Virus record (IMG/VR): IMGVR_UViG_3300031873_001115
Span: 1-25,333 of that record
Length of the DNA stretch: 25,333 nucleotides
DNA from: a virus
Reading direction: 5' to 3' (one strand)
Part shown: positions 4,938 through 25,333 of the stretch, in pieces
How positions within the stretch are numbered: the first letter of the stretch is position 1
Layout of the letters: every line of letters begins with the position of its first letter
Translations under genes and position numbers: made by a program
Notes under the pieces: model-generated
Database searches by the model: none
The model's input: the letters and a program-made list of their open reading frames with translations, nothing else
Told to the model about the DNA's origin: nothing

Positions 4938-7083
4938 TACTCTAAGCGTGGACCCGGCTTCTTTCGAGCGAGCCAGCGTTGCCTTGCAAAATATGCAGAG
5001 CAATTCTCGGCAAGTGCGCGAAGAACTATCTAATAGCCTACGTGCCTTACAAACTTACTCCGATTTAGCTGAACGCCTCAAAAACGCACCAATAGTAGAT
5101 CCTAAAGCCCGCCAGGCACTACAAGATCTAGGTAAAGAATTGGAGAGGATAGGCGTTACTAAAGAAGCAATTTCAGCGGCGGCCGGTAAGGAGACTGTGG
5201 CTTACGGCAAGCTGGGTCTTTTGGATAAGATACGCGTGCGCATGGCTACACTACAAAATGAGCAAAAGAAGCGCCTAGTGTTCCACAATGGTCAATTAGT
5301 TACGCTGGAGTCTAAGCAGGTTTCATTACAACAGGCTGCTCTCAATCTCTCCAAGCAGGGCGCCAGTTACATGAAAAACACCGCCATGGGGGCTGTGCGA
5401 TATGCCACTTCCATGGGCGGTATTGAGCTGTCTTTGATGGGCATCGTGGCGCTTTTGCTTAAGATGGCCGATGAGAGTAACAAACTGGGGGCCATGCAGA
5501 AGCAAGCTGCAGCCCAATGGGGCGACACCAATACCAAAATAAAAACCGCCAGTGCTGCCATGCGGACACTAATGGGCAACTACCAAATGTCCGTGGATGA
5601 AGCAGGTTCCTTGGTGGTGTCCTTGGCGCGGGTGGGCGTGGAAGAAGAGAATGTAAAGCGGTTGTCGGAAGAAGTTGTAGCTATCGAAAAAGTGCACGGA
5701 TTGGGGGCACAAGAGACCGCGCAAGCTGTGACGGATGTAGCCGACAGCTACGGGATGGCGGCCGACCAAGCTTCGCTATTCTTGCGGTCTGTGCGGGAAG
5801 CTACTAAAACTATCCCCGGTCTATCAATGTCTGAAGTCACTGCCGACATGCTGGATTTGGTGCGCACTACCCGGGCCTATAACACTGACTTGCTCGGTGT
5901 GGCGGCCATGTACAATACTCTAATGAATAAAGACATAGCCAAAAAGCTGGGTTTAGGTGATCTGCCTAAGGCTGCACGCAAAGAGCTGGCTATGACTGTG
6001 GCCGGTTTCAGCGAAAAACTATCGGACGGTCTGAAAGCAGCGCTCGGGCAAGAAGAAGGCATGACCCTAGCTGAAGCTCTCATGAATTTCGAGAAGATGG
6101 ACCCAGCCAAGAAATTTGTGAAGATGGCCCAATTCATCACCAAGAACGTTGCTCAATTTACGGGGGCGGAGCAAGAATTCGCCGTTCGCCAGTGGTTGAA
6201 AGAATTCGGCTTCCAGAGTTCCGACATTCAAGAGACGCTGCAGAAAGCGTTTGCGTCTGGTGGTTTCAGCGCGGAAGGCTTAGAAGGTGTGCTGCAAGAA
6301 GTTGGTAAACAGCGCGATATACTGGCCAAGGCTGGGGAAAATGACGCCGTAAACCGCGCCAAGCTATTGGCAGAGGCACAGGGTATAGCCGCGGGGCTCA
6401 CTGGTTGGGAAGCTAAGCTTGAGAACTCTGTCCGAAACGCAATCTTAGGGAGTGCGGATTTTGCCTCGCTAAAGAAATCCATAGACGCTATACTGGAATG
6501 GATGAAGGAAAAACTACCGAAACTAGCCCTTGACATGATTACACTATTGAGTGCTTTGGTACGGTACTTTTATGGCTCAGAGAAGTTCGAACAAAGTCAG
6601 AAAGAGGGTAGGATGGCACGTGAAGTTGAACCAACACTCGAAGCCGGCTATGCCAGATTTGGCGAAGTACAGAAAGCCATGCCGCCCGCAATATCTGCAG
6701 AAGTAGCCTCTGACCGCCTATTCGGCGAAAAAGCGCTGGACCCGCTCGTGGAAGCAGTAAAGCAACTGTCTCCAGCTTATGCGGCAACAATTGAAGCGCA
6801 AGGCGCACCAGGTGGGCGTTCCCAGCGCGCTGCAGCTATTGGTATAGCACTGTCGCAAGTGAGGCATGAACCAAATATAGAGGCAGGGGTCACGGATGAA
6901 ATAACGGAGCTAGCAGAGGCCTTGGCCACCAAGAATATGAATAAAGTAATGCTGATACTGCGGGCACAGCTCCATGAACGCTCTCAGTTAGAAAAGCAAG
7001 GGGAGAAAGCAACTAGACACGCGAAAAGCTCGCATAGCCCATACGGTTATAAGAATCTCCCCCGAAATTTAGAGGGTAGATAA
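4930..7083 (+). CDS. Tail tape measure protein
   Basis: The 717-residue product sets tail length and is ejected ahead of DNA. It is the longest protein in the tail-assembly block, mostly helical and rich in Ala, Lys, Glu and Gln. A hydrophobic segment lies at residues 162-179 (GGIELSLMGIVALLLKMA) and another near 535-560; such membrane-active stretches are typical. At about 0.15 nm per residue the tail would be roughly 105-110 nm. The TTG start is chosen because GAGG at 4920-4923 is well spaced and because an 8-base overlap with the chaperone frame is normal. The C-terminal 30 residues are basic. No lysozyme or peptidase domain is visible within it. Confidence 0.9.
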   Translation: MADTLSVDPASFERASVALQNMQSNSRQVREELSNSLRALQTYSDLAERLKNAPIVDPKARQALQDLGKELERIGVTKEAISAAAGKETVAYGKLGLLDKIRVRMATLQNEQKKRLVFHNGQLVTLESKQVSLQQAALNLSKQGASYMKNTAMGAVRYATSMGGIELSLMGIVALLLKMADESNKLGAMQKQAAAQWGDTNTKIKTASAAMRTLMGNYQMSVDEAGSLVVSLARVGVEEENVKRLSEEVVAIEKVHGLGAQETAQAVTDVADSYGMAADQASLFLRSVREATKTIPGLSMSEVTADMLDLVRTTRAYNTDLLGVAAMYNTLMNKDIAKKLGLGDLPKAARKELAMTVAGFSEKLSDGLKAALGQEEGMTLAEALMNFEKMDPAKKFVKMAQFITKNVAQFTGAEQEFAVRQWLKEFGFQSSDIQETLQKAFASGGFSAEGLEGVLQEVGKQRDILAKAGENDAVNRAKLLAEAQGIAAGLTGWEAKLENSVRNAILGSADFASLKKSIDAILEWMKEKLPKLALDMITLLSALVRYFYGSEKFEQSQKEGRMAREVEPTLEAGYARFGEVQKAMPPAISAEVASDRLFGEKALDPLVEAVKQLSPAYAATIEAQGAPGGRSQRAAAIGIALSQVRHEPNIEAGVTDEITELAEALATKNMNKVMLILRAQLHERSQLEKQGEKATRHAKSSHSPYGYKNLPRNLEGR

Positions 7084-9939: not shown

Positions 9940-11064
9940 ATGCCCAAAATCAGCAGTGCACCTACTGCGGTAGCTGTTTTGCCGGCAGAAGTTATAGCCA
10001 TTTACCCGGCCGATAGGGTAGTCGATATCCGCTGGCTTTCGCAGGAGGGCGGTAAGCGTGGTGTTGTAGTAACTTCTAGCCACGGGGATTACTCTTTTCC
10101 AGCAGTTGGTGACACTGGTCTCGTATTGCAGTACGGATTCAACTTCTTTTATATTGGCCGGATAGACATCAGCTATGCGGCCAAATTAGCTGGAAACGTG
10201 CGCAGCAAACTCACCGGGCAAAAGTTACGTCCCACGGAAGTCGATGGCGGAGAAGCACATCTCGAGAACGTGGCCGCCAAGTCCTATGTGCGCTTTTCAA
10301 ATAACGGTGACTTCAGCCTCTTGAACGCTTTCCGCGAAGGGCTGAAGTATATGCGCAACCTGCGCCGTACAACTATTTCTGCTAAAACGATGGAGTTGTT
10401 TGGTAACGGCATAAAGATAATGTTTGGGACCGCCATCCGCAACCCGGGCACTGGCGAAATACCACCTCCTGGAACCAGCGGTGGGAAGGTCATAGAATTC
10501 CTGCTACAAATTGCCTACCAAGATATACAAACAGTTCGGTTCCACTTAGGAGAAATAGTCGATCTGATTGCCGGGACAGTGCCAGAAATGAGCAGCTTCG
10601 GGGCCCGGTTGAAAGCGCTGCTGGAAGTTACCGCTGGACCGGCGCCTTTGGCTTCTCTGAAAATGGATGAAGTTGGTAACGTGGAGGTTACTTCCGCTAC
10701 TGGGCAGATAAAAACATCGTCCCTTGGTCCAACGACCATAGACAGCAAAAGCACCCTTTCCGCTAGCGCAATCGGTATAGCTTCTATTGATGGACAATTG
10801 GTTCAGCTAGGCGGGTCAGTTGAACAAGTAATAAAAGGTACATCATATGTAAGTAAAGAAAGTGAATTTTTAACACAACTAAACACGTTTACAGCAGCAC
10901 TTACTGGGTTTTTTTCAGCGACTGCATTAAGTCTCACTGATCCTGTCTTGGCTAGCGCAGCAGGGGCTATGGCTGCGCCTGCAGCAACTTTTACTGCAGC
11001 AGTAAATAAATTTTTGTTGACAGATCTTCCTGCTACTTTATCCACTAAAACTTTTGTGGGCTAA
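9940..11064 (+). CDS. Baseplate central spike protein (gpV/gp5-like)
   Basis: The 374-residue product begins with an OB-fold type domain (residues 12-75: AEVIAIYPADRVVDIRW, then YSFPAVGDTGLVLQYG), as in gpV and the gp5 N-terminus. A middle region (about 225-285) of short alternating strands, NVEVTSATGQIKTSS and onward, fits the triple-stranded spike helix. The C-terminus, VQLGG then VIKGTSYVSKESEFLTQL, matches the helical end common in long phage spike proteins. No lysozyme domain and no HxH iron-binding tip motif are present, so a separate tip protein may exist elsewhere. GGAG about 7 bases upstream supports the ATG. Base composition changes sharply near 10810. Confidence 0.82.
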   Translation: MPKISSAPTAVAVLPAEVIAIYPADRVVDIRWLSQEGGKRGVVVTSSHGDYSFPAVGDTGLVLQYGFNFFYIGRIDISYAAKLAGNVRSKLTGQKLRPTEVDGGEAHLENVAAKSYVRFSNNGDFSLLNAFREGLKYMRNLRRTTISAKTMELFGNGIKIMFGTAIRNPGTGEIPPPGTSGGKVIEFLLQIAYQDIQTVRFHLGEIVDLIAGTVPEMSSFGARLKALLEVTAGPAPLASLKMDEVGNVEVTSATGQIKTSSLGPTTIDSKSTLSASAIGIASIDGQLVQLGGSVEQVIKGTSYVSKESEFLTQLNTFTAALTGFFSATALSLTDPVLASAAGAMAAPAATFTAAVNKFLLTDLPATLSTKTFVG

Positions 11065-11066: not shown

Positions 11067-11933
11067 ATGCGCGGGGTCATTTTGGCCGGCGGTGCCGGGA
11101 CAAGACTCTACCCGGTCACCAAAAGTGTTTCAAAGCAGCTTTTACCTATTTATGACAAGCCCATGATTTATTACCCGCTGTCTGTCTTGATGCTGGCAGG
11201 GCTACGTGAAATATTAATCATCAGCACGCCTGAAGATATTCCGCTCTACCGGAAATTACTAGGAGATGGAAGCCGTTTAGGGTTGTCTTTTAGCTATGCT
11301 GAGCAACTGCGTCCCAAAGGGCTAGCGGACGCGTTCGTACTGGGAAAAGACTTCCTGCGTGGAGAGCCGTCCTGTTTGATACTGGGCGACAACATCTTCT
11401 ATGGCAGTCATTTCTCGAACCATCTGGACGCTGGTAAATCTTTGCAGAAAGGTGCGCTCATTTTTGGCTATCCAGTTAAGGACGCACGCCAATTCGGTGT
11501 TGTGGAGTTTCAGGATGGGAAGGTAATTTCTTTAGAAGAAAAACCAGTTGAGCCGAAGTCACACTATGCGGTCCCGGGGTTGTACTTCTACGACGGACAG
11601 GCTCCTGAGTTTGCTGCTAAGTTGCGCCCATCCGCCCGGGGTGAACTGGAAATTACAGACCTGAACCGTGAGTACATGCAGCGTGGGCAATTGCAGGTGG
11701 AAATACTTGGGCGCGGCCTTGCTTGGTTGGACACCGGATCCTGCGATGGATTGCTGGATGCGTCCAATTTCGTACAAGCTATACAAAAGCGCCAAGGTCT
11801 ATATGTAGCCTGCATTGAGGAAATTGCCTTCCGAATGAAGTACATTACTGCTGCCCAGTTAATGGGTCTAGCTGACGAACGTACGGACTATGGAAAGTAT
11901 TTGGCTGTCTTGGCCAGGGAAGGAACCAAATGA
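11067..11933 (+). CDS. rfbA: Glucose-1-phosphate thymidylyltransferase (RmlA)
   Basis: The enzyme joins dTTP and glucose-1-phosphate to give dTDP-glucose, the first step of dTDP-rhamnose and related deoxysugar pathways, in the cytoplasm. All family landmarks are present: GGAGTRLYP (residues 8-16), KQLLPIYDKPMIYYP (23-37), GLADAF (85-90), GDNIFYG (107-113), EEKP, then GLYFYD, RGELEITDLN and WLDTGS. The 288-aa length is normal. It starts 3 bases after the spike gene, on the same strand, with only a weak Shine-Dalgarno, suggesting coupling to late transcription. It is the last gene before a strand switch. Its pathway partner rfbC lies 1.5 kb away on the other strand; rfbB and rfbD are not in the window. 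Confidence 0.97.
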   Translation: MRGVILAGGAGTRLYPVTKSVSKQLLPIYDKPMIYYPLSVLMLAGLREILIISTPEDIPLYRKLLGDGSRLGLSFSYAEQLRPKGLADAFVLGKDFLRGEPSCLILGDNIFYGSHFSNHLDAGKSLQKGALIFGYPVKDARQFGVVEFQDGKVISLEEKPVEPKSHYAVPGLYFYDGQAPEFAAKLRPSARGELEITDLNREYMQRGQLQVEILGRGLAWLDTGSCDGLLDASNFVQAIQKRQGLYVACIEEIAFRMKYITAAQLMGLADERTDYGKYLAVLAREGTK

Positions 11934-11935
11934 GC

Positions 11936-11983
11936 CTGAGGGAGCCCCCAGCGATGGGGGAAGACTGCAAGAGGCTCCCTCAG
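11936..11983. terminator. Probable bidirectional terminator hairpin
   Basis: An 11-base perfect inverted repeat, CTGAGGGAGCC (11936-11946) and GGCTCCCTCAG (11973-11983), encloses a second small CCC/GGG hairpin. It fills the 53-base gap between the convergent stops of rfbA (+) and the CDF transporter (-). No long T tract follows on either strand, so intrinsic termination is likely but not certain. Confidence 0.6.
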
Positions 11984-11986
11984 TCT

Positions 11987-12898
11987 CTAGCCTTGAGTCC
12001 TAGGTCCACCGTTTGGTTCAATATGGAGTATCACATCAGCCCCGGGCAGGATTTGTCGCACTTCCTGCTCGATAGCGTCTGCAAGTGCGTGGCTCTGGCT
12101 GAGACTTGCGCCCGCTTCCATACACAATACCGCGTCTATGAAGATCTTAGGCCCGCTACGCCGCACTCTGACGCGGCTAACGCGCCTCACGCCCGGCAAG
12201 TACATAGCCTTCAAAATTTTATCGTTGATCCCCGGCGGCACTTCGTCTAGTAAGTCGGCGACGGTCTTTCGCCCCAATCGACAGCTCAGCCAGACAGCAA
12301 TCACGGATACGCTGAGAGCCGCTACGGCATCAGCGTGCAGGAGCCAGAACAGACCGGCACGGTCGCCTATCCATGCAAGGGCCAGACCAATGAGCACGAC
12401 CCCTGACGACCAAATATCACTCGAAAAGTGCAGAGCGCCGGCTTCCAGGGATTGACTATTGTGTTTGCGGGCCACCCGGTAGAGTTTGCGGGCTAGCACA
12501 ACGTCCACAACGATTGAACCCGCCATAACCCCGAAGGCCCAAACTGAAGGCTCTACCCCAGTCCTGTTTTGAACTAGGCGCTCGATAGCCTCAGCGGCAA
12601 TCCAAACACAAGTACCAAGGAGCAACAGCACTTGGAACAGGGCCGACAGGTTCTCCACTTTCCCATGGCCGTAGGGGTGCTCGAGGTCGGCCGGCCGTGA
12701 CGACACCCGGATGGCGCACCAAGCCGTCGCTGCAGCAACTAAGTCGAGCCCAGAGTGGGCCGCCTCAGAGAGAATTCCCAGGCTGTCTGTTACCAGCCCC
12801 ACGCACAGCTTCGTGCCCGCCAAACCAGCCGCTGCAACGACGGAAGCCAGTGCTATGAACTGTTTCTCACGGTCATCCCGGGTTACGATTTGGGTCAC
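11987..12898 (-). CDS. Cation diffusion facilitator (CDF) family metal transporter
   Basis: The product should be an inner-membrane antiporter exporting zinc or similar divalent metals. Using GTG at 12898 it has 303 residues. TM2 carries H48-xxx-D52 (SEAAHSGLD) and TM5 carries H157-xxx-D161 (HFSSD), the paired HD/HD sites typical of Zn/Cd-type CDFs. The loop HPYGHGKVEN (74-83) and the C-terminal metallochaperone-like domain (GVRRVSRVRVRR to VILHIEP) are family hallmarks, so the gene is full length and looks intact. GTG is preferred over upstream starts because AAAGG lies 8 bases before it and it limits overlap with the upstream gene. The gene is GC-rich relative to its phage neighbours, suggesting recent acquisition. 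Confidence 0.93.
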   Translation of the reverse strand: MTQIVTRDDREKQFIALASVVAAAGLAGTKLCVGLVTDSLGILSEAAHSGLDLVAAATAWCAIRVSSRPADLEHPYGHGKVENLSALFQVLLLLGTCVWIAAEAIERLVQNRTGVEPSVWAFGVMAGSIVVDVVLARKLYRVARKHNSQSLEAGALHFSSDIWSSGVVLIGLALAWIGDRAGLFWLLHADAVAALSVSVIAVWLSCRLGRKTVADLLDEVPPGINDKILKAMYLPGVRRVSRVRVRRSGPKIFIDAVLCMEAGASLSQSHALADAIEQEVRQILPGADVILHIEPNGGPRTQG

Positions 12899-13313
12899 AA
12901 CTCTGACCTTTCTGTGGCCCAGCCCGGAGTTCTCCGAGCGTGCTTTCGCGGACCACCGCATCGCCAGGATACCACTCGATCCTACAGCTGACATACTTCT
13001 TCACCCAATCCAGGAGAAGATCATCGAGGGCCTTTTCTGCTTCATCCTCGAGCCCCTGTTGGATGCTCACAACATCATCATAGTAGATGTCTCGGTTCAC
13101 TCGCTCCTCCAATACGGCGAGTGTTTCGGGTACGTCTCCGAGTTGGTTTGCCCATTCCTCAATCTTCATGTCCTTCACTGTCATTATCGTCACTCTGGTC
13201 TCGTCCCCGTATGTTTTGCAGAACTCCAGGAGGTCTTGAATTGCTTCAGCTATGAAGTCAAAAGGACCTTTGCTTTCCGAAAACCTATCTGCAAAATTCC
13301 AGCAATACGGCAC
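12873..13313 (-). CDS. Acidic protein of unknown function
   Basis: I recognise no family. The 146-residue product starts at GTG with a strong GGAGGG (13318-13323) four bases upstream, which fixes the start. It is rich in Asp and Glu, with helical segments such as FIAEAIQDLLEFCKTYGDE and DEAEKALDDLLLDWVKKYV. No membrane segment is seen. Its end overlaps the proposed CDF start by 26 bases, so the two are probably translated together. A link to metal export is suggested only by adjacency. Confidence 0.65.
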   Translation of the reverse strand: MPYCWNFADRFSESKGPFDFIAEAIQDLLEFCKTYGDETRVTIMTVKDMKIEEWANQLGDVPETLAVLEERVNRDIYYDDVVSIQQGLEDEAEKALDDLLLDWVKKYVSCRIEWYPGDAVVRESTLGELRAGPQKGQSCDPNRNPG

Positions 13314-13367
13314 GGCACCCTCCTACAGGTGCTTCCATAGATCGTAGTCATCTGACACTAGAATAGC

Positions 13368-13383
13368 CCCATGCGCGCATGGG
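13368..13383. repeat. 16-base perfect palindrome in intergenic gap
   Basis: CCCATGCG and CGCATGGG are joined without a spacer in the 126-base gap between rfbC and the acidic-protein gene. It lies about 55 bases upstream of the GTG at 13313. A spacerless palindrome fits a dimeric protein's operator better than an RNA hairpin. On the - strand the gap also holds TACAAT (13412-13417) as a possible -10 box, without a clear -35. On the + strand an AT-rich tail follows it, which could support antisense termination. Confidence 0.4.
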
Positions 13384-13439
13384 TTAATTTATTAGGCCAC
13401 GCCGTAGCTTTATTGTATTTCGCCCCGTTGAGACCGGGT

Positions 13440-13925
13440 CTAGTAAGTGTGAGTCTCTCTCAGTGTGGGCAGTGTTTGGTCTTTGTCTGAAAGTATCGCC
13501 GTCCTTGGCCATGGGATGCGCAGATCGCGGTCATTCCAAATGATACCGGACTCATCCTCAGGATGATAGAAATCAGAGCATTTGTATAGCACAGTAGTGT
13601 TGTTATCTAAAGCCTGGAAGCCATGCGCGAACCCAGCCGGGATAGATATCCAATCAAGAACGCTGAGACGCTTATACTCTGCTTTCTTGAAGCTGGGAGA
13701 CTCCGTGCGAAGGTCTACCCACACGTCGAAAATTTCCCCGCTGAGCACTATTACAAATTTTGCTTGTGGGTGTTTTGTTTGTAGGTGAAGGCCGCGAACA
13801 GCCCCAAAACACGATACCGATATATTGTCTTGAACGTACGGTGTATCCCCCTGTCGGAACAGTTCTGCGAAGTAACCACGGTCGTCTGAAAATTTGCGGA
13901 GCTTCCCCCAAGAAATCGTCTTCAT
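13440..13925 (-). CDS. rfbC: dTDP-4-dehydrorhamnose 3,5-epimerase family protein (RmlC)
   Basis: RmlC epimerises dTDP-4-keto-6-deoxyglucose at C3 and C5 on the way to dTDP-L-rhamnose. The cupin shows the family core: DRGYF (15-19), QDNISVS (32-38), RGLH with presumed catalytic H47, K56, GEIFDVWVDLR (63-73), IPAGFAHGF (95-103), Y114 in LYKCSDFY and SGIIWND with D132. The common NYY is DFY here, so Tyr to Phe next to the active-site Tyr could alter specificity. At 161 residues it is slightly shorter than usual. ATG at 13925 is chosen because GGAGG lies 4 bases upstream; a longer start at 13946 would run into the tRNA. Alternative role: a 3- or 5-epimerase for another dTDP-sugar. Confidence 0.93.
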   Translation of the reverse strand: MKTISWGKLRKFSDDRGYFAELFRQGDTPYVQDNISVSCFGAVRGLHLQTKHPQAKFVIVLSGEIFDVWVDLRTESPSFKKAEYKRLSVLDWISIPAGFAHGFQALDNNTTVLYKCSDFYHPEDESGIIWNDRDLRIPWPRTAILSDKDQTLPTLRETHTY

Positions 13926-13945
13926 ATTGCCTCCATTAAAGAACA

Positions 13946-14018
13946 TGGGCCCAGCAGGGATCGAACCTGCACCCTACCGGATATGAGCCGGCTGCGCTAC
14001 CATTTGCGCCATGGGCCC
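13946..14018 (-). tRNA. tRNA with anticodon CAT, probably tRNA-Ile2 (AUA) rather than Met
   Basis: The 73-base cloverleaf is complete: acceptor GGGCCCA/TGGGCCC, D stem GCGC/GCGC with G18G19, anticodon stem GCCGG/CCGGT around loop CTCATAT, five-base variable loop, T arm GCAGG/CCTGC with TTCGATC, discriminator A73, no encoded CCA. A paired position 1-72 excludes a typical initiator, which also needs three G-C pairs at 29-31:39-41. C4-G69 and C5-G68 are the pairs that TilS uses to pick tRNA-Ile2 over elongator Met in E. coli. The phage genes here use ATA codons often. Its 5' half overlaps the end of the zinc-ribbon gene, and rfbC starts 20 bases after its 3' end. Confidence 0.95.
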
Positions 14019-14228
14019 ACTTATTTTCTTCCAGCAACCAGGACCACAGTGCTCTTCTTGTCCAGCATAGCGCTGGCCACATACTGGACACTGGATTGCT
14101 ATGAAAGATTTAGCTATTAATGGTGCACGAAAGCGCACTCCACACTCACATTCTAGTTCACCATACCCGTGCTCTTCGCATGGCGACTCACCAAAGTCGT
14201 CACAGGTACACTTCACGTGCTCATCCAT
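13974..14228 (-). CDS. Small zinc-ribbon protein overlapping the tRNA gene
   Basis: The 84-residue product has CxC and C near the N-terminus, then CECG and CPVCG 18 residues apart (about residues 27-51) and two more Cys (HCGPGC), the pattern of a zinc ribbon. ATG at 14228 overlaps the upstream stop by 8 bases (ATGGATGA), indicating coupling; a longer in-frame start at 14444 would bury it in the neighbouring gene. The last 14 codons and the stop are encoded by the first 45 bases of the tRNA gene. Function unknown; small ribbons of this type often bind nucleic acid or partner proteins. Confidence 0.65.
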   Translation of the reverse strand: MDEHVKCTCDDFGESPCEEHGYGELECECGVRFRAPLIAKSFIAIQCPVCGQRYAGQEEHCGPGCWKKISGPMAQMVAQPAHIR

Positions 14229-14670
14229 CGAGCCCATCCAGCTCGGCTTGTAACTCCGCCCGCCGTGTCTCGACTTCCTTCGCGAAGTAGTCACGTACCA
14301 GCTGGATGGCAGGTTCAGGGATCTGCTTAGCGCGCAGCCGCTCTTCCCAGCCTTCGTGTGGCTCGTCGTGATAGTTAGACGGATTTTTTTCGCCAACGAT
14401 AAAGCAATCTGGACTCGAGAAAACTTGCTTATCTTCGAACACAATATAGGGGCGTACTTCTACGGGGCTATCCTCGCAACACCCGCAATTATGTCGAATA
14501 TCGACCTGGTCTGCAATCGGATTCACCTTGGAACTCACCAGCCTTTCCTGACTCCAGCGATCGACGCTGACCTCAAGGTCGGGAAAGTGCTCGCACAGCC
14601 GAGTTATCTCGGCCAGTTTCTTTTGTGCCTTCGCCAATTTCTCTTGGGCTTCTGCCAGCGGATTTTTCAC
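14221..14670 (-). CDS. Coiled-coil protein of unknown function
   Basis: The 149-residue product starts at GTG overlapping the methyltransferase stop by three bases (GTGA), with GGAGGG just upstream. Residues 4-28 form a clear heptad coiled coil (AEAQEKLAKAQKKLAEITR). The centre contains HNCGCCEDSPVEVRPYI, a Cys-rich beta hairpin with possible metal binding. The C-terminal part is again helical and charged. No family is recognised. Tight coupling to the methyltransferase and the zinc-ribbon gene suggests a shared process, but none can be named. Confidence 0.7.
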   Translation of the reverse strand: MKNPLAEAQEKLAKAQKKLAEITRLCEHFPDLEVSVDRWSQERLVSSKVNPIADQVDIRHNCGCCEDSPVEVRPYIVFEDKQVFSSPDCFIVGEKNPSNYHDEPHEGWEERLRAKQIPEPAIQLVRDYFAKEVETRRAELQAELDGLDG

Positions 14671-15578
14671 GAACCCTCCGAAAGTCTTTCCTTGGCCAAA
14701 TCGAAGAATTGTTGCTCGACTTCTATTCCTACGAAACGCCTACCGGTATCCCGCGTTGCTACCCCGGTGGTACCGCTGCCCATGAAAGGGTCAAGCACTA
14801 CTCCACGCGGTGGGCAAAATAGCTCGCAGAGATATTTCATTAGTTCGAGGGGTTTCTGGGTGGGGTGCTTGTTGGCATATTTTTCTTGCCCTTGATTGAC
14901 TTTTATACAGTAAAAGTATTTGGCTCGAGCCTCCAACTGTTCCGCGGTTTGCTCATCCACTACCACGTTTCTCGGCCACCTACCTTTACTGGAAACAGTA
15001 TGGTAGGGTGTACCTGCACCGCCACCAAATGGCTTGGCCCCTTCATCCCATCTGTTGATGAACACTTCTTCATCGCCAGTACGTTGGATGTTTATCCCGC
15101 CAGTGCCCCATTTGGCCACGTTTTCTGAGAGAGTACCTTCCGGGGGCTTTCTGGCCACCACGACGGGTTCAAAGCTCGGCCTAAGGGCAGTACCGCGACC
15201 ACCACCAAGATCGTGGCTCTTTGGAAACCCACCGTTGTGCAGCCAGGCAATAGAGTCTACAATCTCCAATCCAGCTAGCCGCATACCGACAGTGAGTAAG
15301 TCAAAAGTCCTTGGACTGCCGAAAGCTACAGTAAAAGCGCCGGGTTTCATTACGCGACAAACTGCGCCCCAGTGACTAGGGTTAGGTAGATTGTCCCAGC
15401 CTTTTAGGCTTACCGAATACGTACCGGCCAACCAGCTACCCAGCAGCTTGTCTACCAATATCTTTTCAGATATACCGTAGGGGGGATCAGTGATGACTGC
15501 GTCAATGGAATTGTCCGCATAGAGACACAGCACTTCTCGGCAGTCACCCTTGTGCAACTTCAGCCGATCAGGTGCCAA
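14667..15578 (-). CDS. DNA methyltransferase, beta class (N6-adenine or N4-cytosine)
   Basis: The enzyme transfers a methyl group from S-adenosylmethionine to an exocyclic amino group in DNA. Catalytic motif IV is DPPY (31-34) and the AdoMet-binding motif I is DPFMGSGTTG (263-272). This order, IV before I, with the target-recognition region between (about 120-215), defines the beta class (N6_N4_Mtase family). HPTQKPLELM is the usual motif X segment before motif I. The 303-aa length is normal. The start is TTG, with a weak GAGA upstream and a 19-base overlap with the peptidase gene. No restriction endonuclease gene is adjacent, so it is probably an orphan protecting phage DNA or marking packaging/transcription. 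Target sequence unknown. Confidence 0.95.
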   Translation of the reverse strand: MAPDRLKLHKGDCREVLCLYADNSIDAVITDPPYGISEKILVDKLLGSWLAGTYSVSLKGWDNLPNPSHWGAVCRVMKPGAFTVAFGSPRTFDLLTVGMRLAGLEIVDSIAWLHNGGFPKSHDLGGGRGTALRPSFEPVVVARKPPEGTLSENVAKWGTGGINIQRTGDEEVFINRWDEGAKPFGGGAGTPYHTVSSKGRWPRNVVVDEQTAEQLEARAKYFYCIKVNQGQEKYANKHPTQKPLELMKYLCELFCPPRGVVLDPFMGSGTTGVATRDTGRRFVGIEVEQQFFDLAKERLSEGS

Positions 15579-16162
15579 GGTATCTCTGCCATCGTTACCG
15601 CAGCCAGCAGCTCTGGGAGCGGGTCAACATAAACTTGCTTTCCGCCCAGAGTCTTGCGGAGAGTTAGATGTAAATGCGGACCGGTAGAATCTCCGGTAGA
15701 CCCCACTTCTCCAATAATATCTCCAGCTTCCACTACAGACTTAGGTTTCAGAGGAGATAACGCATATAAATGGCAGTACCCGCTCGACTGCACCGGACCT
15801 TCGTGGTGGGCAATAATTACGGAATTGCCGCCTCCATGACCGCCGTGCTTAACCTTGGGGTCAAACCAGCTCTTAGTAACTACCCCACTCCACGGAGCGT
15901 GGATGGGAGTTCGTGCCGCTTTCGGTAAGTCTTGCCCGTTGTGATACTGTATCCACGGGTGCCTGTCTTTACTAGTCACGCCACACGTAGGGCACATCCG
16001 GTTGTACTCATAGTCAACCACCTTCTTGCAATCGGGGCAAACTTCATGGATGGGATGTGCACGGAGGCCAAAGAAAAGTCCGCGTGGGGCATTAGGATCA
16101 AGCTTTTTTTGGAGTAGAACTTGTAGGTCATTATATAAGTCCGCCCAAAGAATCCAGTCCAC
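15560..16162 (-). CDS. M23 family peptidase (LytM-type), with zinc knuckle
   Basis: The 200-residue product should cut peptidoglycan cross-bridges or stem peptides. Zinc ligands of the family are visible: H74-xxx-D78 (HNGQD) and H163-x-H165 (PHLHL), with the catalytic-site H131 in YCHLYAL. GSTGDSTGPHLHL is the family signature. Residues 42-60 carry CPDC and CPTC, a four-Cys zinc knuckle inserted before the catalytic domain, which is unusual for a phage lysin. There is no signal peptide or membrane segment, so export would need a holin or virion delivery. GTG start is supported by GGAG 7 bases upstream. It lies one base after the DHH stop. It may be the endolysin or a virion-associated lysin. 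Confidence 0.93.
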   Translation of the reverse strand: MDWILWADLYNDLQVLLQKKLDPNAPRGLFFGLRAHPIHEVCPDCKKVVDYEYNRMCPTCGVTSKDRHPWIQYHNGQDLPKAARTPIHAPWSGVVTKSWFDPKVKHGGHGGGNSVIIAHHEGPVQSSGYCHLYALSPLKPKSVVEAGDIIGEVGSTGDSTGPHLHLTLRKTLGGKQVYVDPLPELLAAVTMAEIPWHLIG

Positions 16163-18366: not shown

Positions 18367-19776
18367 ATGGCTGACACCAAATCGCTACAAACATTGATAG
18401 CTGAAGTCAAGGTGTTTATTCGTACGAAAAATAGGTCACTGGACGTTAGCAACAACAGCCTTATAAATGACATCATACTGACACCTTATGGGGTCGCGGG
18501 AAAGCTACTCATGGATCAAGTGGAGGTAGCTAAAAACCTCCACATCCTGTCTTCCCTCACCGATACCGATTTAGATAATGAAGGCACGAACTACAATAAA
18601 GAGCGTAGCGGTGGCGTCTACGCTGCTGTGGACCTGACGTTCTATGCTACCACAAAGCCGACTGCGGAAGTAGTGATTCCAGCTACGGCACAGGCACAAA
18701 CCGCGGGCACGGCTTTCAGTACGCCCGTAACTTTTACAGTCGATGGCGAGTCACGCTTCGCACTGGCTGATGTGGACGCGTATTATTCACATGACCGAGA
18801 CCGTTATGAGTTTACGTGTTCGGCCACCTGTGATGAAACTGGTACCGGCGGAAATGTTAGTGCCAACACCGTATCTATGCTAGTTGGCGGTATTTCACAG
18901 ATTAACGGAGTCTCCAACCTTACGGCTGCGGTTGGTGGTTCTGACCAAGAGGAGGATGACGATTTACGGGAGCGCATCAGACTAGCTAAGTTGGGGCGGT
19001 GTCTAAACGTCTCCAACGGTATCAAAGGTTACCTTGCTGGTTTGGGTTTCGTGGACTCCCACGTAATTCGGGTTGAGGAGGCTGGTTACGAGCGGGCGTC
19101 AGGGGTAGACGCTTTCGTGGTTGACTACTCGTCCGAAGTACAAACCGATGCTTTTATATATGATCCAGCGCAACAACGTTACTATTTCACAAAGCGCCCG
19201 GTGCGGGAAGTTACGGTAGTGCGGTCTGCCGCTATTGGAACGTTATCCACCAGTCAATATGCGGTAACTGTTGATTCCACATCGCCCATGCGCCGCAGTG
19301 TCTATGCCCAGGACTTCATAGAATTCATGGCACCGCTAGTCGTTGGTGATACCCTCTCTGTCTCCTATAACTATTCCTCGGCTATTTCTCAGGCACAAGC
19401 TACTTTGAACCTACCAGACAACCGCGTTCTAACGGCGGACATCCTAGTGAAGCGGGCATACCCACTCTCGCTTTTCTTGAGCGCTTCACTGACCCTCAAA
19501 GCTAACGCGGATGGTCCCTCGACCCGCAACAAATGCCGGAACGCGCTGTCGCAGTTTTTGTCATCTTACCGTCTCGGCGATGACGTGCAAAAGAGCGATC
19601 TGATAATAGTCTTGCAACAAGGGTATGGCGACTACCCGGTAGACAGCGTGGATGCTGTCACCATCAGCAGCTTCTATCTACTAGACGAATGGGGCAGCGC
19701 TTACACTGCTACCAATGACATTATTGCGGTAGGCGATAAAGAGCACGCCATTTACGGTAGCGCTACGGTGGTCTGA
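18367..19776 (+). CDS. Baseplate wedge protein, baseplate J-like
   Basis: The 469-residue product belongs to the baseplate J (P2 gpJ / T4 gp6-core) family. The diagnostic segment is GTGGNVSANTVSMLVGGI, then GVSNLTAAVGGSDQEEDDDL and RERIRLAKLG (about residues 155-218). The N-terminal helical part and C-terminal region starting SLFLSASLTLKANADG are in family order. The protein forms the wedge ring that joins hub to tail fibres and triggers sheath contraction. AGGAG precedes the ATG by 4 bases. Its stop overlaps the following spike gene by one base (TGATG), tying receptor-binding proteins to wedge expression. Confidence 0.9.
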   Translation: MADTKSLQTLIAEVKVFIRTKNRSLDVSNNSLINDIILTPYGVAGKLLMDQVEVAKNLHILSSLTDTDLDNEGTNYNKERSGGVYAAVDLTFYATTKPTAEVVIPATAQAQTAGTAFSTPVTFTVDGESRFALADVDAYYSHDRDRYEFTCSATCDETGTGGNVSANTVSMLVGGISQINGVSNLTAAVGGSDQEEDDDLRERIRLAKLGRCLNVSNGIKGYLAGLGFVDSHVIRVEEAGYERASGVDAFVVDYSSEVQTDAFIYDPAQQRYYFTKRPVREVTVVRSAAIGTLSTSQYAVTVDSTSPMRRSVYAQDFIEFMAPLVVGDTLSVSYNYSSAISQAQATLNLPDNRVLTADILVKRAYPLSLFLSASLTLKANADGPSTRNKCRNALSQFLSSYRLGDDVQKSDLIIVLQQGYGDYPVDSVDAVTISSFYLLDEWGSAYTATNDIIAVGDKEHAIYGSATVV

Positions 19777-22100
19777 TGGTAGCGTATACGTCAGCAGCCA
19801 ATGGTGAGTGGAATGTAGACGCCACCTGGGGTGGTGGCGGACACCCTCAGGCTGGGGACACCGCTACTATCAACCATAACGTATATGTAGACTCCAATGT
19901 TGTGGTTGGTAACAGCCCGGCTAACGACACCACCTATGTTGTGCTCATCAACAATGGTGGTGTACTGCGTTGGGAAAATCCGCCGTCAGGTAACTGGACT
20001 TTTGAGTGTCGCGGAAATATTCGCGTTGCTGAAGGGGGGACGTTTACAGTTGGTACAATAGCTTCCCCCATCCTGGCAGCGAACACAGCTGATGTGTATT
20101 TCCCAATGGCAGGCGCCTGGCACTGGCGGATCTATAACCAAGGTGGGGTAGTCGAAATATGTGGTGCATCTGCTTATCATATGGCAGACGCCAACAAACA
20201 ACGTACTAGGTTGAGTGCTTCATGTACCTCGGGAGCTGTGACATTTACTGTTGAGGACGGCGTAGACTGGTCAACCAATGATTATGTTGTGATCGGTCAC
20301 GGTGGTAACGCTGCGACCGCTATGGTACCCGCTACGTACCAATCGGAACGTGTGCAGGTTACCAAGGTAACAGCCAGTTCATACTCGGCGGTACTTGCGT
20401 ATGCACACCAGGCTGGAGATTTTATCTTCAACACTGAACGCAATGTTCGAGTTCGAGGGCTTGATAATACTCATGGAATCAGACTTTATTCAACACATGG
20501 TGCAAGTGCGACTGCCGCAAACGCTAAAACGTGTTTGTCTTGGATGAAATTCAGGTATGGTGGGACGACTTCAAGTGACACATACTCAGCTGTGGTCCAT
20601 CAACTTCAGTCTACATCTCAAGCCTATTCGGTATCTGCGGACAACTTTTGTATTGATAGTGTCGTCTTTGATGAGAGCGGTGCGCGTGGTGCATCGGTAT
20701 CAACTGCACAGTGTATCACACTTAACAATACTGTTCCCTATGCAGACCCTGAGTGCATCTCAAATGTGCATGCGTTCGATTTTGATAGAACTATAAGTAT
20801 AGGCGCTAGTTTTCTATACGAACTGACTGTCCGCAAACTTACTGCCGTGCGTATAGGAGGAGCCTCGGTCTATAACCTGAGCGCACGGTTGACATTAGAT
20901 GAGTATTGGTACAACAATAATGACTGGACTAATGCTGCATCGTATGGAGTGCAAGGTACACTCAGTCAATTATCAAATTTCAAGTTCCACTGCGGGTATA
21001 TTGGTTGTCAAACATCTGGCAGTTCCGCAGTTGTAGCAGCCTGCGAAATGGCAATAACACAAGGAGCGATCCAGCATTTTTACACTCACGGACTTTATAT
21101 AAATTTCCCACAACACATGAAGGTAAAAAATGTGGATTTCTATGAATGTCGAAATACTGGGTATATGTCAGCAAATTTCCATCCACGAGCAAAATTCGTT
21201 GGGTGTAATTTTGATAAATGTGGCTTCAACAATGCTTCAAATGATGGTGCAATTTCAGGGATGGACGCTTATGTAGAAAACTGTACATTTGGACTGAACT
21301 CCAGAAATACACGCAACAATATTGTTATGTACAATGGTGGAGCTACTTATGACCCATCGGGCAGGGTGATTGCACGCAACTGCGCTTTCAAGGAGCCGTT
21401 GAATTGGTCAGCCACAATTGGTGTTTACCGTTATTACAAAAAAGCCATGTTTTGGTCTGTGGCGCAGTACAATATGCAAGATTGGCGAGGAAGAGTTTTG
21501 ATGAATGTAACACCCGGAGAAATTCGAGATTGTACTGTTATTGATTCCACCGGCGTAGACCAATGGGCCATTGATTACGGTTCTTCTGTAACACAAATAA
21601 TTAACGGCTGTTGCGGCGGTGAGGTCAGAAACAACCCAGCTCCGTCTGGCGGTTGGCTGGACAGCACATTTCAACGCGCCATTTTGCCCTTTCACGGTTC
21701 ATTACCCATGCAAATGAATAGGCACCTCACTATTCGGATACCTGCTACGGCAGGACAGACCGTCACGGTCAATTTATCCATGCGAAAAATAGCTGACGGG
21801 AAACACGCATTACCAAATATACGGCTTGAGGGGCCTGGTATTTACAGCACAGCCACAATGACAGCAGGACTTCTCAACACTTGGGAAGAATTAACTGTCA
21901 GTGGCGTTGCTACTCATACTGGAACGTGCCAGCTTTTCGTGTCTGGGGGAAGCAGCATTTCAGGTTATGGTAGTATTGGAAATGGTGGAGTTAGCTGGAC
22001 CAACGATCCACAAGCTGCGCCCGTGGGTTTGAACGAAGACGAAATGTTTGGAGTTACAGTTTACGCAGACGGCTTATTAATCAGTATTACGGGGCCATAG
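19776..22100 (+). CDS. Tail spike/fibre protein with G8 and CEMIP-like N-terminal half and beta-helix (copy 1)
   Basis: The 774-residue product begins with a G8-like domain (about 11-128): GEWNVDATWGG, PQAGDTATI, then NIRVAEGGTFTVGT. Residues 129-230 follow the segment seen after G8 in CEMIP/TMEM2 proteins: TRLSA, VDWSTNDYVVIG, ERVQVTKV, LAYAH and ERNVRVRGLD. Residues about 250-600 are short repeating strands with Cys and Asn ladders, typical of a right-handed beta-helix. Residues about 640-774 resemble a beta-sandwich and recur in the next gene. Likely a trimeric tail spike that binds or cuts a surface polysaccharide; active-site residues cannot be assigned. The centre (20400-21600) is AT-richer than the wedge genes. 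Confidence 0.72.
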   Translation: MVAYTSAANGEWNVDATWGGGGHPQAGDTATINHNVYVDSNVVVGNSPANDTTYVVLINNGGVLRWENPPSGNWTFECRGNIRVAEGGTFTVGTIASPILAANTADVYFPMAGAWHWRIYNQGGVVEICGASAYHMADANKQRTRLSASCTSGAVTFTVEDGVDWSTNDYVVIGHGGNAATAMVPATYQSERVQVTKVTASSYSAVLAYAHQAGDFIFNTERNVRVRGLDNTHGIRLYSTHGASATAANAKTCLSWMKFRYGGTTSSDTYSAVVHQLQSTSQAYSVSADNFCIDSVVFDESGARGASVSTAQCITLNNTVPYADPECISNVHAFDFDRTISIGASFLYELTVRKLTAVRIGGASVYNLSARLTLDEYWYNNNDWTNAASYGVQGTLSQLSNFKFHCGYIGCQTSGSSAVVAACEMAITQGAIQHFYTHGLYINFPQHMKVKNVDFYECRNTGYMSANFHPRAKFVGCNFDKCGFNNASNDGAISGMDAYVENCTFGLNSRNTRNNIVMYNGGATYDPSGRVIARNCAFKEPLNWSATIGVYRYYKKAMFWSVAQYNMQDWRGRVLMNVTPGEIRDCTVIDSTGVDQWAIDYGSSVTQIINGCCGGEVRNNPAPSGGWLDSTFQRAILPFHGSLPMQMNRHLTIRIPATAGQTVTVNLSMRKIADGKHALPNIRLEGPGIYSTATMTAGLLNTWEELTVSGVATHTGTCQLFVSGGSSISGYGSIGNGGVSWTNDPQAAPVGLNEDEMFGVTVYADGLLISITGP
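19809..19841 (+). repeat. 33-base direct repeat, copy 1
   Basis: The stretch encodes WNVDATWGGGG in the G8-like domain and is identical, base for base, to 22143-22175. Flanking sequence has diverged, so either strong constraint or recent gene conversion has kept it. Confidence 0.9.
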
Positions 22101-22109
22101 CGAGGCAGC

Positions 22110-24725
22110 ATGGTTGCATATACGAGCAGTGGTACTGGAAATTGGAATGTAGACGCCACCTGGGGTGGTGGCGGATTCCCACAAGCTGGAGACACGGCTA
22201 CAATTCGAGCCGTGGATATAGTAACAATTGTCCAGAACGAGGCTCTCGGTACTGACCCAGCGAATTACACGACTTACGGACTAGATATTTACGGTACACT
22301 CAAATGGGCGACAAACGCAACATGCACACTCACGTGCACGACAAATATTCGCATACGAGTTGGGGGCACCCTCGAAATCGGAAGTGAACTCGCCCCCATC
22401 AACGTAGACTATAAAGCCACTCTTTATATGGCTGGTACTTACGGCCGTCGGATTCTATTAGACACAGACTCTGATGGTGGCAAAGGTACGCTTCGCATGC
22501 ACGGTGCTGTTTCTTATCATATGGCTGACGCCACGAAGCAGCGTGCTCGGCTCTTGAGCGATGTTGCCCTTGGTCCTGCAACGATTACACTTGACGCCGA
22601 TACAGATTATTTAACCGATGCTGAATTGGGCGGGGGTAACGGAGACACGATTTGGCTCGGTAGTGGCGGAAGCCGGACAACAGTAGTCATGACTGATGGT
22701 GGTGCTGATATCGCCGGTTTTGGAAATGAACAGGTCCGATTATTAACGAAAGTCAGTGCAAATACGTATACAACAACTTTAACATACAACCACAATGCTG
22801 GAGATTTAGTAGTCCATGGCGAGAGAAATGCCATTATCTTGGGAGTGCTGAATAACGGCTTTGAGATTTACCAAACTATAACTCCACGACAGAATTCTAT
22901 TCAGTTTACACTCAGTGCCGTTGGGTACGTTCCTGCTGTTCCAGGTGATGTGGGGCGGCGCGTAGGTGCTGGCGCAGGCAACGGTTGTATGAGTTCTTAT
23001 TTTAACGGTGTGCCCCCCTCGTGGACGGTAAGTTTAGATACTGGTGATGACTGGCCGACAGTTGGGGATTGGCTGCAAATTCAGGGAGGATCCGGTTATG
23101 GACGACTTTCTGCTCTGACGCCGACACAAGCACAGTTTCAGAGTTCTGCAGGTGGGGTGGATGTGCGGTGGGCCAAATTCAAATATGGTGGTGCAGAAGA
23201 CGCAGGATTTGCTTCACGTAATGTTTTTTACTTTATAAATACGTTCATGGGGTCCACAAAAATTGTTAATGGTATGTACATATTTAAAAACGTGTTATTC
23301 GATACACCGGGGTATTCATCCGGGAGTACAACGAGCTACGGGGTTCTGTTTTATGCCCATTCGCGCATAAACGTCACCGCTGAAGACATCGATGAAGTAC
23401 ATGCTTATGGATATTTAGGGACCGTGAGTTTGTCTTCCGGTGGATCTGGTGTATGTTCCGGTCTTTTTACTGTCGGACACCTAACAGGTATTCATACAAA
23501 AGCTGTTCTAGCACTAGCTGCACTGGCAAAAGTAAACATCAAACGTATATGGCACTCGTTCACAGGAGGTGCTGCGTCTGCATCAGATGGATCTCTAATG
23601 TCATGGGGCTCCGCCTTTACTCTTTCAGATATTGTTTCTGCACGTGCTCCACTTTATGGCATATACACACAGAATCCGTCAAACAACGAAATGGCTGCAG
23701 CGACGTGTGAAATATTGGGTGGTGAAATACTTAACGGGACTTATGGAATAAGTAGCTCGAATAAGGTCCAGAGTATGTATGTAAAGAACGTGTATTTTAG
23801 ACACATGTATTATGACGGTGCTTTTTTAGGTGGTCAATGCAGTCGTATAACTTTCGACAATTGTGAATTCCACAATTGTATCCGCCAATCCGCCTCTGTC
23901 CTTGGTGGTGGAATCCGCATAAACTCATTTTCAACAGCAGGTACGCCGTCCAATGTTACCCTCAGGCGCTGCAAATTTGGGACAGACGAACAAAACCATC
24001 GCCGGAACATCTCGTTAGGTGTGGCTACTTTGCGCTATAATACAGGTCGGATTTTGATCGAAGGTTGTATTTTCAAAAAGCCATTTTGGAATGTAGCTGA
24101 ACCGTCTTACAGTACCTGGGGTGAGTGGCGCTCCGCGATTGTTTTTCCGGAGTATGCAGACATTACTCCCCTAACAGACGAAATGTGGTTGCGTGGAGCA
24201 ACCCTGGAGATTGTTGACCCGACAGTATATGATGCGGCCGGTGTGGAACGCTGGGCAACAGCATACCCGGGCATCACACGCATGGCTCGGGTGGGTAGTG
24301 GCGGCGAAGTATGGAATGAAAATTCCGTACTCATCGACGACACAATTGGCGTAAAAATTACGCCGTTTTCCAATAAAGTGCCGTGCCCTGGGACGTATGC
24401 TGTTCCGTTACAGATTCCTGTAACTGCGGGGCAAAACCTGCAAATACAAGTTCAATTCCGGAAGACACGTGCCATTACTTCCGCCACAGAACGCCCGTCT
24501 TTACACGCTTTTGGGTGCGGTATTGACACAAGCCAAGTTATGCCGGATGTAACAAACGTGTGGACGACACTATCTATTTCAGAGACCGCGACATATTCGG
24601 GCATGGTCCGTGTGTGGTTTGAAGCGGGCGTCAACTATTGGAAAATCGTCGGCCCTTCTCGACAGCCCGAAGACCCGTGGTGGATGACTGTATATGTTGA
24701 TGGAATGGTTGTTACGTATACTTAA
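22110..24725 (+). CDS. Tail spike/fibre protein with G8 and CEMIP-like N-terminal half and beta-helix (copy 2)
   Basis: This 871-residue paralogue of the preceding gene starts 9 bases after its stop, with GAGG at 22102-22105. The G8-like domain (10-130) has NWNVDATWGG, PQAGDTATI, then RVGGTLEIGS; GTLRMHGAVSYHMAD (126-140) and GERNAIILG (237-245) match copy 1. An insertion of about 80 residues (roughly 258-345, including DTGDDWPTVGDWLQIQGGSG) separates this half from the beta-helix; copy 1 lacks it. The beta-helix shares CKFG, RRN and CIFKKPF landmarks. The C-terminal domain (about 760-871) again has PVTAGQ and MTVYVDG. Tandem spikes of this kind usually broaden host range. Enzymatic activity is not shown by the sequence. 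Confidence 0.72.
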   Translation: MVAYTSSGTGNWNVDATWGGGGFPQAGDTATIRAVDIVTIVQNEALGTDPANYTTYGLDIYGTLKWATNATCTLTCTTNIRIRVGGTLEIGSELAPINVDYKATLYMAGTYGRRILLDTDSDGGKGTLRMHGAVSYHMADATKQRARLLSDVALGPATITLDADTDYLTDAELGGGNGDTIWLGSGGSRTTVVMTDGGADIAGFGNEQVRLLTKVSANTYTTTLTYNHNAGDLVVHGERNAIILGVLNNGFEIYQTITPRQNSIQFTLSAVGYVPAVPGDVGRRVGAGAGNGCMSSYFNGVPPSWTVSLDTGDDWPTVGDWLQIQGGSGYGRLSALTPTQAQFQSSAGGVDVRWAKFKYGGAEDAGFASRNVFYFINTFMGSTKIVNGMYIFKNVLFDTPGYSSGSTTSYGVLFYAHSRINVTAEDIDEVHAYGYLGTVSLSSGGSGVCSGLFTVGHLTGIHTKAVLALAALAKVNIKRIWHSFTGGAASASDGSLMSWGSAFTLSDIVSARAPLYGIYTQNPSNNEMAAATCEILGGEILNGTYGISSSNKVQSMYVKNVYFRHMYYDGAFLGGQCSRITFDNCEFHNCIRQSASVLGGGIRINSFSTAGTPSNVTLRRCKFGTDEQNHRRNISLGVATLRYNTGRILIEGCIFKKPFWNVAEPSYSTWGEWRSAIVFPEYADITPLTDEMWLRGATLEIVDPTVYDAAGVERWATAYPGITRMARVGSGGEVWNENSVLIDDTIGVKITPFSNKVPCPGTYAVPLQIPVTAGQNLQIQVQFRKTRAITSATERPSLHAFGCGIDTSQVMPDVTNVWTTLSISETATYSGMVRVWFEAGVNYWKIVGPSRQPEDPWWMTVYVDGMVVTYT
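22143..22175 (+). repeat. 33-base direct repeat, copy 2
   Basis: Identical to 19809-19841, in the same frame and domain position of the paralogous spike gene. It could mediate deletion or recombination between the two spike genes. Confidence 0.9.
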
Positions 24726-24742: not shown

Positions 24743-24997
24743 ATGTCTTCCTTCACCACAGACGGCGCTTTTCCGTACTATTTATGGACCAGTCCGGAAC
24801 TGGTTGTGGACGGCGCCACTCCACTGGGCCGGGTAACCCCTGCACCTCCTATACCGCCCTCCGCTGTGGCCGAAATCCTAATTGACTCAGAAGTTGTTTG
24901 GTCGTCCTTAACCTCCACATCTCAACAGCAGCTTAGCTTCGACGTCCGCAACTTTATAGGCAACCACACCATCACGTTTAGGATTAGAGCAATATGA
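24743..24997 (+). CDS. Small beta-rich tail-region protein
   Basis: The 84-residue product starts at ATG with AAGGTAGG about 8 bases upstream. It has a Pro-rich linker (TPAPPIPPSAV, about 32-42) followed by alternating strands (AEILIDSEVVWSSL, then SFDVRNFIGNHTITFRIRAI). No family is recognised. It may be a small fibre-associated or trimerisation protein. The next gene's ATG overlaps its TGA (ATGA), so the two are coupled. Confidence 0.65.
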   Translation: MSSFTTDGAFPYYLWTSPELVVDGATPLGRVTPAPPIPPSAVAEILIDSEVVWSSLTSTSQQQLSFDVRNFIGNHTITFRIRAI

Positions 24998-25333
24998 ACA
25001 TAATCTGGGTTTCAAAACAGGGTTCTGACACTACCGGAGATGGGTCGTACGACAAGCCTTATCTGACTATCGATGAGGCCTTGACGCATTTTACAGGCGG
25101 GGACCAAATAAGAATACTGGATGGTACCTATACGCCGACCGACAGCATAGTGATCAGTGGTAAAGAAGGCAGTATTTTCGCAGAGAACCCGCAGGCAGTG
25201 TACATCCAGCCACAGAAGACCAGTGTACACGCGGCTGGGGTAGCCATTCTAGATTCCACTAGATTTCTGCTGTACGGTGTGAACGTTTTGCAAGCCGCGG
25301 ATTCTGCTGGCAATCTGATAGGTATATACGCAG
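24994..25333 (+). CDS. Right-handed beta-helix tail fibre/spike protein (3' partial)
   Basis: The frame starts at ATG 24994 and is open to the right edge, so only the first 113 residues are seen. The opening, IIWVSKQGSDTTGDGSYDKP then YLTIDEAL, GGDQIRILDGTYT, matches the N-terminus of DUF1565-type parallel beta-helix proteins, in which a GSDxxGDGS motif precedes the first coil. The following residues form regular short strands. It is probably a third receptor-binding or polysaccharide-active protein of the same tail-fibre cluster. Confidence 0.72.
   Translation, partial: MNIIWVSKQGSDTTGDGSYDKPYLTIDEALTHFTGGDQIRILDGTYTPTDSIVISGKEGSIFAENPQAVYIQPQKTSVHAAGVAILDSTRFLLYGVNVLQAADSAGNLIGIYA

What the first reader, a model, noticed from the sequence alone, without database searches (positions are those of the whole stretch)
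19776..24725. Tandem phage spikes with a G8-plus-CEMIP-like architecture
Both proteins open with a Gly-rich beta segment that fits the G8 domain, followed by the strand pattern (LSA, GDxIVIG, AERNVxxxG) found after G8 in the hyaluronan-degrading CEMIP/TMEM2 proteins, then a beta-helix. The motifs are read from the sequence; the family link is by pattern memory. If right, these would be viral relatives of a fold best known from animal hyaluronan metabolism, used here on bacterial surface glycans.
Basis: partly seen in the sequence, partly recalled or inferred. Interest (0 to 1): 0.75.

Follow-up and report, generated by a model that had tools for sequence, protein, structure and literature searches.

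The report
Phage tailspikes with G8/TMEM2-like N-termini
Two neighbouring genes of an uncultured contractile-tailed phage encode spike proteins that begin with a G8 domain, until now known mainly from animal proteins of hyaluronan and kidney biology, and the same opening turns up, mostly unlabelled, at the very start of phage proteins in dozens of environmental virus contigs.

Summary
Two tandem ORFs directly follow a baseplate J gene in a contractile-tail phage. Pfam G8 matches spike 2 well above its cut-off (E 2e-8); spike 1, a paralog (40% identity over the N-terminus), falls just below it. A profile of nine phage N-termini finds human TMEM2 (8c6i) as its best match among all PDB sequences (E 1.8e-4), across G8 and again after TMEM2's lectin insertion. 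The predicted N-terminal model also has TMEM2 as best structural match (Z 10.6, 183 residues, 26% identity). But the stretch after G8 ("GDxIVIG") is not specific to CEMIP/TMEM2: it resembles the 'rider' barrel of phage K1 lyase and other phage structural proteins. The TMEM2/CEMIP lectin-like domains are not detected. Conserved ends (about 40% identity), a variable middle (22%), beta-helix matches and baseplate synteny fit receptor-binding tailspikes; enzyme activity is inferred, not shown. Related N-termini occur in 88 viral-contig stretches and in one cultured phage (Curvibacter PCA1, 'hypothetical protein'); sampled members are almost absent from PHROGs. Best label: tailspikes with a G8-plus-rider beta-helix start, akin to TMEM2's N-terminus but not CEMIP/TMEM2 family members.

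The parts
18367..19776 (+). Baseplate J-like protein (baseplate wedge), gene immediately upstream of the spikes
   Evidence: Pfam PF04865 E 6.8e-15; phrog_6 E 5e-28; 48% identical to the J gene upstream of the tandem spikes in L006
19776..22100 (+). Spike 1 (774 aa)
   Evidence: ORF; paralog of spike 2; 36% identical over full length to L006 first spike
19824..20075 (+). Spike 1 G8 segment (residues 17-100)
   Evidence: Pfam G8 18.2 bits, sub-cut-off; 21.5 bits, E 3e-6 in six-frame search of the record
20196..20495 (+). Spike 1 post-G8 small barrel (about residues 141-240), rider-type
   Evidence: by alignment to spike 2, whose barrel is modelled
20523..21575 (+). Spike 1 putative beta-helix body (about residues 250-600, boundaries approximate)
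   Evidence: by alignment to spike 2
21633..22097 (+). Spike 1 C-terminal beta-sandwich region (about residues 620-774)
   Evidence: by alignment to spike 2
22110..24725 (+). Spike 2 (871 aa)
   Evidence: ORF; model m092c135b9e42
22158..22520 (+). Spike 2 G8 domain (residues 17-137)
   Evidence: Pfam G8 34.4 bits, E 2.3e-8, over cut-off; pLDDT near 90 over most of it; TMEM2 8c6i is the top listed structural match and covers it together with the barrel
22530..22841 (+). Spike 2 post-G8 small barrel (about residues 141-244), rider-type
   Evidence: VIA-align: TMEM2, tail tube 9n71, K1 lyase 7w1d/7w1c, P22 coat 9pgg
22878..23154 (+). Spike 2-specific insert (residues 257-348), fold not modelled
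   Evidence: pLDDT about 30-45; absent in the six other aligned members
23157..24209 (+). Spike 2 right-handed beta-helix body (residues 350-700)
   Evidence: Pfam Beta_helix E 2.7e-6; phrog_2234 tail spike E 2e-4; structural matches
24312..24722 (+). Spike 2 C-terminal beta-sandwich (about residues 735-871), CBM4-like by Foldseek
   Evidence: Foldseek CBM4-2 2y64 E 1.6e-4, TMt 0.44; range assigned from the model's strand pattern

Best explanation
The two proteins are baseplate-attached tailspikes (receptor-binding proteins) of a contractile-tailed phage. Shown by computation: the protein starts with a G8 domain homologous to that of human TMEM2, followed by a rider-type small barrel and a right-handed beta-helix, and it ends in a beta-sandwich resembling carbohydrate-binding modules. 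Inferred: as in TMEM2, G8 forms the first rungs or cap of the continuous beta-helix, and the N-terminal module is the constant end that assembles on the virion. The variable beta-helix recognises, and probably cleaves, a host surface polysaccharide, with the C-terminal sandwich helping to bind it. Two diverged copies would give the phage two receptor specificities.
For: G8 in spike 2 over cut-off and in 8 of 9 related N-termini at E up to 1, five of them over cut-off. Nine-member profile has TMEM2 8c6i as top PDB sequence hit, E 1.8e-4, next hit E 0.23, with the match resuming after TMEM2's lectin insertion at WKPGDQIVV...RNIVIQGE. N-terminal model: TMEM2 Z 10.6, 183 aligned, 26% identity, rmsd 6.8; the other listed rows cover only residues from about 133 on, apart from one at Z 7.7 with 114 aligned. 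Whole model: TMEM2 Z 15.1 with 480 aligned, among tailspikes and depolymerases. Spike genes follow Baseplate_J in the window, L003 and L006, in tandem in two of these. Mean pairwise identity: G8 40%, post-G8 39%, helix 22%, C-term 40%, the pattern of receptor-binding proteins. Tail sheath and tape measure genes show a contractile tail.
Against: No acidic residue is invariant within the helix body (residues 355-699) of the seven aligned members, so a shared catalytic site is not supported. Helix and C-terminal parts of the model are of moderate or low confidence. No separate particle-binding domain precedes G8, so the anchoring mode is unknown. Trimerisation was not tested. N-termini related to this one also sit on short proteins (about 340 aa) that are unlikely to be the same kind of spike. 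Foldseek with the N-terminal model alone gave no match at E below 0.001.
Confidence: 0.7

Rival explanations
1. Ordinary phage tailspikes whose N-terminus only resembles G8 because both are the generic start of a beta-helix; no special kinship with TMEM2.
For: The post-G8 segment matches many phage proteins (tail tube 9n71, AP22 lyase 4y9v, K1 lyase rider). Whole-model ranks 1 and 2 are tied between the Pam1 tailspike and TMEM2. The Curvibacter-type profile A8 does not list TMEM2.
Against: Pfam G8 over cut-off in several members; TMEM2 is the top PDB sequence hit for two overlapping profiles and the top structural match of the N-terminal region, with 26% identity and sequence order kept across TMEM2's insertion.
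Confidence: 0.15
2. True polysaccharide depolymerases that degrade a uronic-acid-rich capsule (possibly hyaluronan-like) with an active site homologous to that of CEMIP/TMEM2.
For: Same domain order; long structural overlap with TMEM2 through the helix (480 residues); other structural neighbours include capsule lyases and depolymerases.
Against: No invariant acidic residue within the helix body; lectin-like domains not detected; the TMEM2 active site itself is unassigned (PMC10206443).
Confidence: 0.08
3. G8 plus barrel is a virion-attachment module only, with unrelated bodies swapped behind it.
For: L026 shares only residues 1-177 with the Curvibacter protein; many loci share only residues 1-41; always at ORF residue 1 in nearly all loci whose match begins there.
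Against: In TMEM2, which attaches to no virion, G8 is part of the helix itself (PMC10206443); the same start is used in phages with quite different neighbouring genes.
Confidence: 0.3

Closest known systems
TMEM2/CEMIP2 ectodomain (PDB 8c6i)
   Same: N-terminal G8, then a small barrel or sandwich, then a right-handed beta-helix; top sequence-profile and N-terminal structure match
   Different: TMEM2 has a lectin-like domain inserted at the start of the small barrel and a second C-terminal one; the window spikes have neither detected. It is a membrane-anchored animal protein
Klebsiella phage K1 lyase (NTUH-K2044-K1-1 ORF34, PDB 7w1c/7w1d)
   Same: Tailspike beta-helix with a 'rider' barrel on an early rung and a C-terminal sandwich (PMC8822698); Foldseek top match of the whole model
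   Different: K1 lyase starts with a collagen-XVIII-like trimerisation domain in place of G8
Curvibacter phage PCA1 UZZ64504.1 ('hypothetical protein')
   Same: Same G8-like start; 28% identity to L003 over the N-terminus, E 2e-4; profile comparison of the two groups gives 99.9% probability
   Different: Different body; different gene context (after a gene labelled tail fibre, near portal and terminase)
Fibrocystin/PKHD1 G8-PbH1 regions
   Same: G8 followed by parallel beta-helix repeats (PMC13424714)
   Different: Two G8-helix units inside a huge receptor-like animal protein; not compared directly here

Membership tests
G8 domain family (Pfam PF10162) | Match to the curated profile over its cut-off | tested here: met
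   Spike 2 34.4 bits against cut-off 22.9; spike 1 18.2 (not met alone, linked by 40% identity to spike 2)
G8 domain family (Pfam PF10162) | Conserved glycines and strand pairs | tested here: met
   Eight invariant Gly across nine phage members, though their one-to-one match to Pfam's eight was not checked; mostly-beta model at high confidence over most of G8
CEMIP/TMEM2 family | G8 at the start of a continuous beta-helix | tested here: met
   model only, no solved structure
CEMIP/TMEM2 family | Lectin-like GG domain inserted after G8 | tested here: not met
   No Pfam match other than G8 and Beta_helix at E up to 10; the loop is short in both window proteins. L006 second spike carries an insert of about 150 aa without a Pfam match at this position
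CEMIP/TMEM2 family | Second C-terminal lectin-like domain | tested here: not met
   C-terminus is a CBM4-like sandwich by Foldseek; no GG match
CEMIP/TMEM2 family | Hyaluronan binding or cleavage | not testable with these tools
   needs assay; disputed even for TMEM2
Phage tailspike / receptor-binding protein | Gene beside baseplate genes | tested here: met
   After Baseplate_J in the window, L003 and L006; not so in L004 and L009
Phage tailspike / receptor-binding protein | Right-handed beta-helix with tailspike-like fold | tested here: met
Phage tailspike / receptor-binding protein | Trimer | not tested
   no multimer prediction available
Phage tailspike / receptor-binding protein | Depolymerase activity or conserved catalytic acids | tested here: inconclusive
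   No invariant acid within the helix body among seven members, but substrates may differ
K1-lyase Rider domain (PF24149) | Match to the curated profile over its cut-off | tested here: not met
   Not listed for the window spikes; sub-cut-off in relatives L026 (15.9 of 27 bits) and L009 (12.3). Structural match Z about 8

The most novel reading that the evidence does not exclude
The G8-barrel-helix start is an old module shared by phage tailspikes and the animal TMEM2/CEMIP/PKHD1 proteins, possibly acquired by animals from phage or bacterial sources, and the phage spikes keep a glycan-processing groove equivalent to TMEM2's unassigned active site.
Probability: 0.12. Interest if true: 0.85.

Novelty: new variant of a known kind. 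Interest (0 to 1): 0.55.

Why it matters
It links a domain studied in animal hyaluronan metabolism and polycystic kidney disease to a widespread but unlabelled phage spike architecture. Phage spikes are easy to express, so they could serve as simple models of what G8 does. The lectin domain of TMEM2 then appears as an addition within a scaffold that phages use without it, which narrows the search for the minimal functional unit. It would also let annotators label many environmental phage receptor-binding proteins.

Tried and rejected
Direct phmmer of each spike against PDB sequences gave nothing meaningful; profiles were needed. tblastn of spike 2 against cultured phages and plasmids found nothing. 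Delftia phage RG-2014 hit rejected: it spans two ORFs and neither has a G8 match. Foldseek with the N-terminal model alone was uninformative (best E 5.6e-3, mostly ATP-synthase barrels and alanine racemases); TMEM2 emerged only in the second-look alignment. The Curvibacter-type profile A8 hits phage tail tube and AP22 lyase in the post-G8 part, not TMEM2, which shows that the post-G8 motif is not TMEM2-specific. NCBIfam gave nothing. A tree of the seven spikes pairs window spike 1 with L006 first spike (94/95, just below the starred level) but does not settle spike 2. Papers joining G8 with phage: none relevant among those listed.

Full report
What is there. The window is an IMG/VR virus record of 25,333 bases. 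It holds a contractile-tail module: tail sheath 1916-3283, tape measure 4930-7083 and Baseplate_J 18367-19776. Two tandem ORFs follow, 19776-22100 and 22110-24725. They are paralogs, 40% identical over the first 240 residues and about 24% over most of the rest.

G8. Pfam G8 (PF10162) matches spike 2 at residues 17-137 with 34.4 bits (cut-off 22.9) and spike 1 at 17-100 with 18.2 bits. Relatives found in IMG/VR (L003, L004/L005, L006 twice, L009/L010) carry the same start; G8 is over cut-off in L003, L004, L006 first spike and, in the second group, L024, when the N-terminal part or the protein is scanned. Eight glycines are invariant in the nine-member N-terminal alignment.

Link to TMEM2. The profile of seven full-length spikes has TMEM2 8c6i as best PDB sequence hit at E 0.0082. 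The nine N-termini give E 1.8e-4, next best 0.23, and the alignment skips TMEM2's lectin insertion and resumes at WKPGDQIVV ... LTRNIVIQGE. The predicted full-length model has TMEM2 at Z 15.1 with 480 residues aligned and 16% identity, the longest alignment among the listed rows, tied in Z with Pam1 tailspike. The N-terminal model alone (pLDDT 81.6) has TMEM2 first at Z 10.6, 183 residues, 26% identity, rmsd 6.8, while nearly all other listed matches begin at about residue 133 or later. According to the TMEM2 structure paper G8 is part of the continuous beta-helix, with a small sandwich and a lectin-like domain inserted after three turns (PMC10206443).

The post-G8 segment is not a private CEMIP/TMEM2 mark. 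It matches the rider barrel of K1 lyase, a phage tail tube (9n71), P22 coat protein and AP22 lyase. The K1 lyase paper describes the rider as a barrel on rung 2, similar to the P22 coat I-domain, that stabilises the trimer and takes part in sugar binding (PMC8822698). In L006 second spike an insert of about 150 residues sits where TMEM2 has its lectin-like domain, so this loop tolerates insertions; its own fold is unknown. No GG lectin domain was detected in the window proteins.

Function. Mean pairwise identity is 40% in G8, 39% in the post-G8 barrel, 22% in the helix and 40% in the C-terminus. Conserved ends with a variable middle, baseplate synteny in three records, Beta_helix and tail-spike family hits and tailspike structural neighbours together point to receptor-binding tailspikes. 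The C-terminus resembles CBM4. No acidic residue is invariant within the helix body, so enzymatic action is inferred only from the fold.

Spread. A profile of the Curvibacter-type group retrieved 88 viral-contig stretches, 80 kept. In most of them the module starts the ORF; bodies range from about 340 to 1490 aa. Of 38 representatives, including the window's spike 2, 15 match G8 at E up to 0.01 and only two matches to any PHROG were listed. Profile comparison shows that the window group and this group are homologous over residues 1-246 (99.9%). Among 50,697 phage records one cultured phage, Curvibacter PCA1, was found to have it, labelled hypothetical.

Limits. Seven to nine sequences feed the models; helix confidence is moderate; no multimer; bacterial G8 proteins could not be reached, so direction of transfer is open. 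Whether InterPro already lists viral G8 entries could not be checked, so the novelty claim rests on the paper library and PHROGs only.

Noticed in passing
window 11067-16162: Compared with L003 and L006, whose baseplate region runs from the equivalent of 9940-11064 to the DHH gene with at most one small extra ORF, the window carries about 5 kb of extra genes here: RmlA-like nucleotidyltransferase, a cation-efflux protein (GC 58% in that kilobase), dTDP-rhamnose epimerase-like, tRNA-Met, DNA methylase, M23 peptidase.
   Followed up: partly
window 24743-24997: Small ORF after the spikes starts with a 'TDGAFP' motif also seen in the ORF after the spike in L009 (8340-8927) and, more loosely, L006 (11840-13621); function unknown.
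   Followed up: no
window 24994-25332: Next gene, cut by the window end, looks like another beta-helix protein (DUF1565 sub-cut-off, phrog_4577 tail protein), with similar ORFs in L003 and L006.
   Followed up: no
L006 9066-11831, about residues 165-320: Insert of about 150 aa between G8 and the post-G8 barrel, at the same position as the lectin-like insertion of TMEM2; no Pfam match.
   Followed up: partly
L004 5735-7273: ORF with the look of a TnpB-type transposon protein upstream of the spike gene, which here lies away from baseplate genes; judged by eye only.
   Followed up: no
L085, L089, L090, L099: Short proteins (about 340-350 aa) that share only the first 41 to 99 residues of the G8 opening with the query; their role is unclear.
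   Followed up: no
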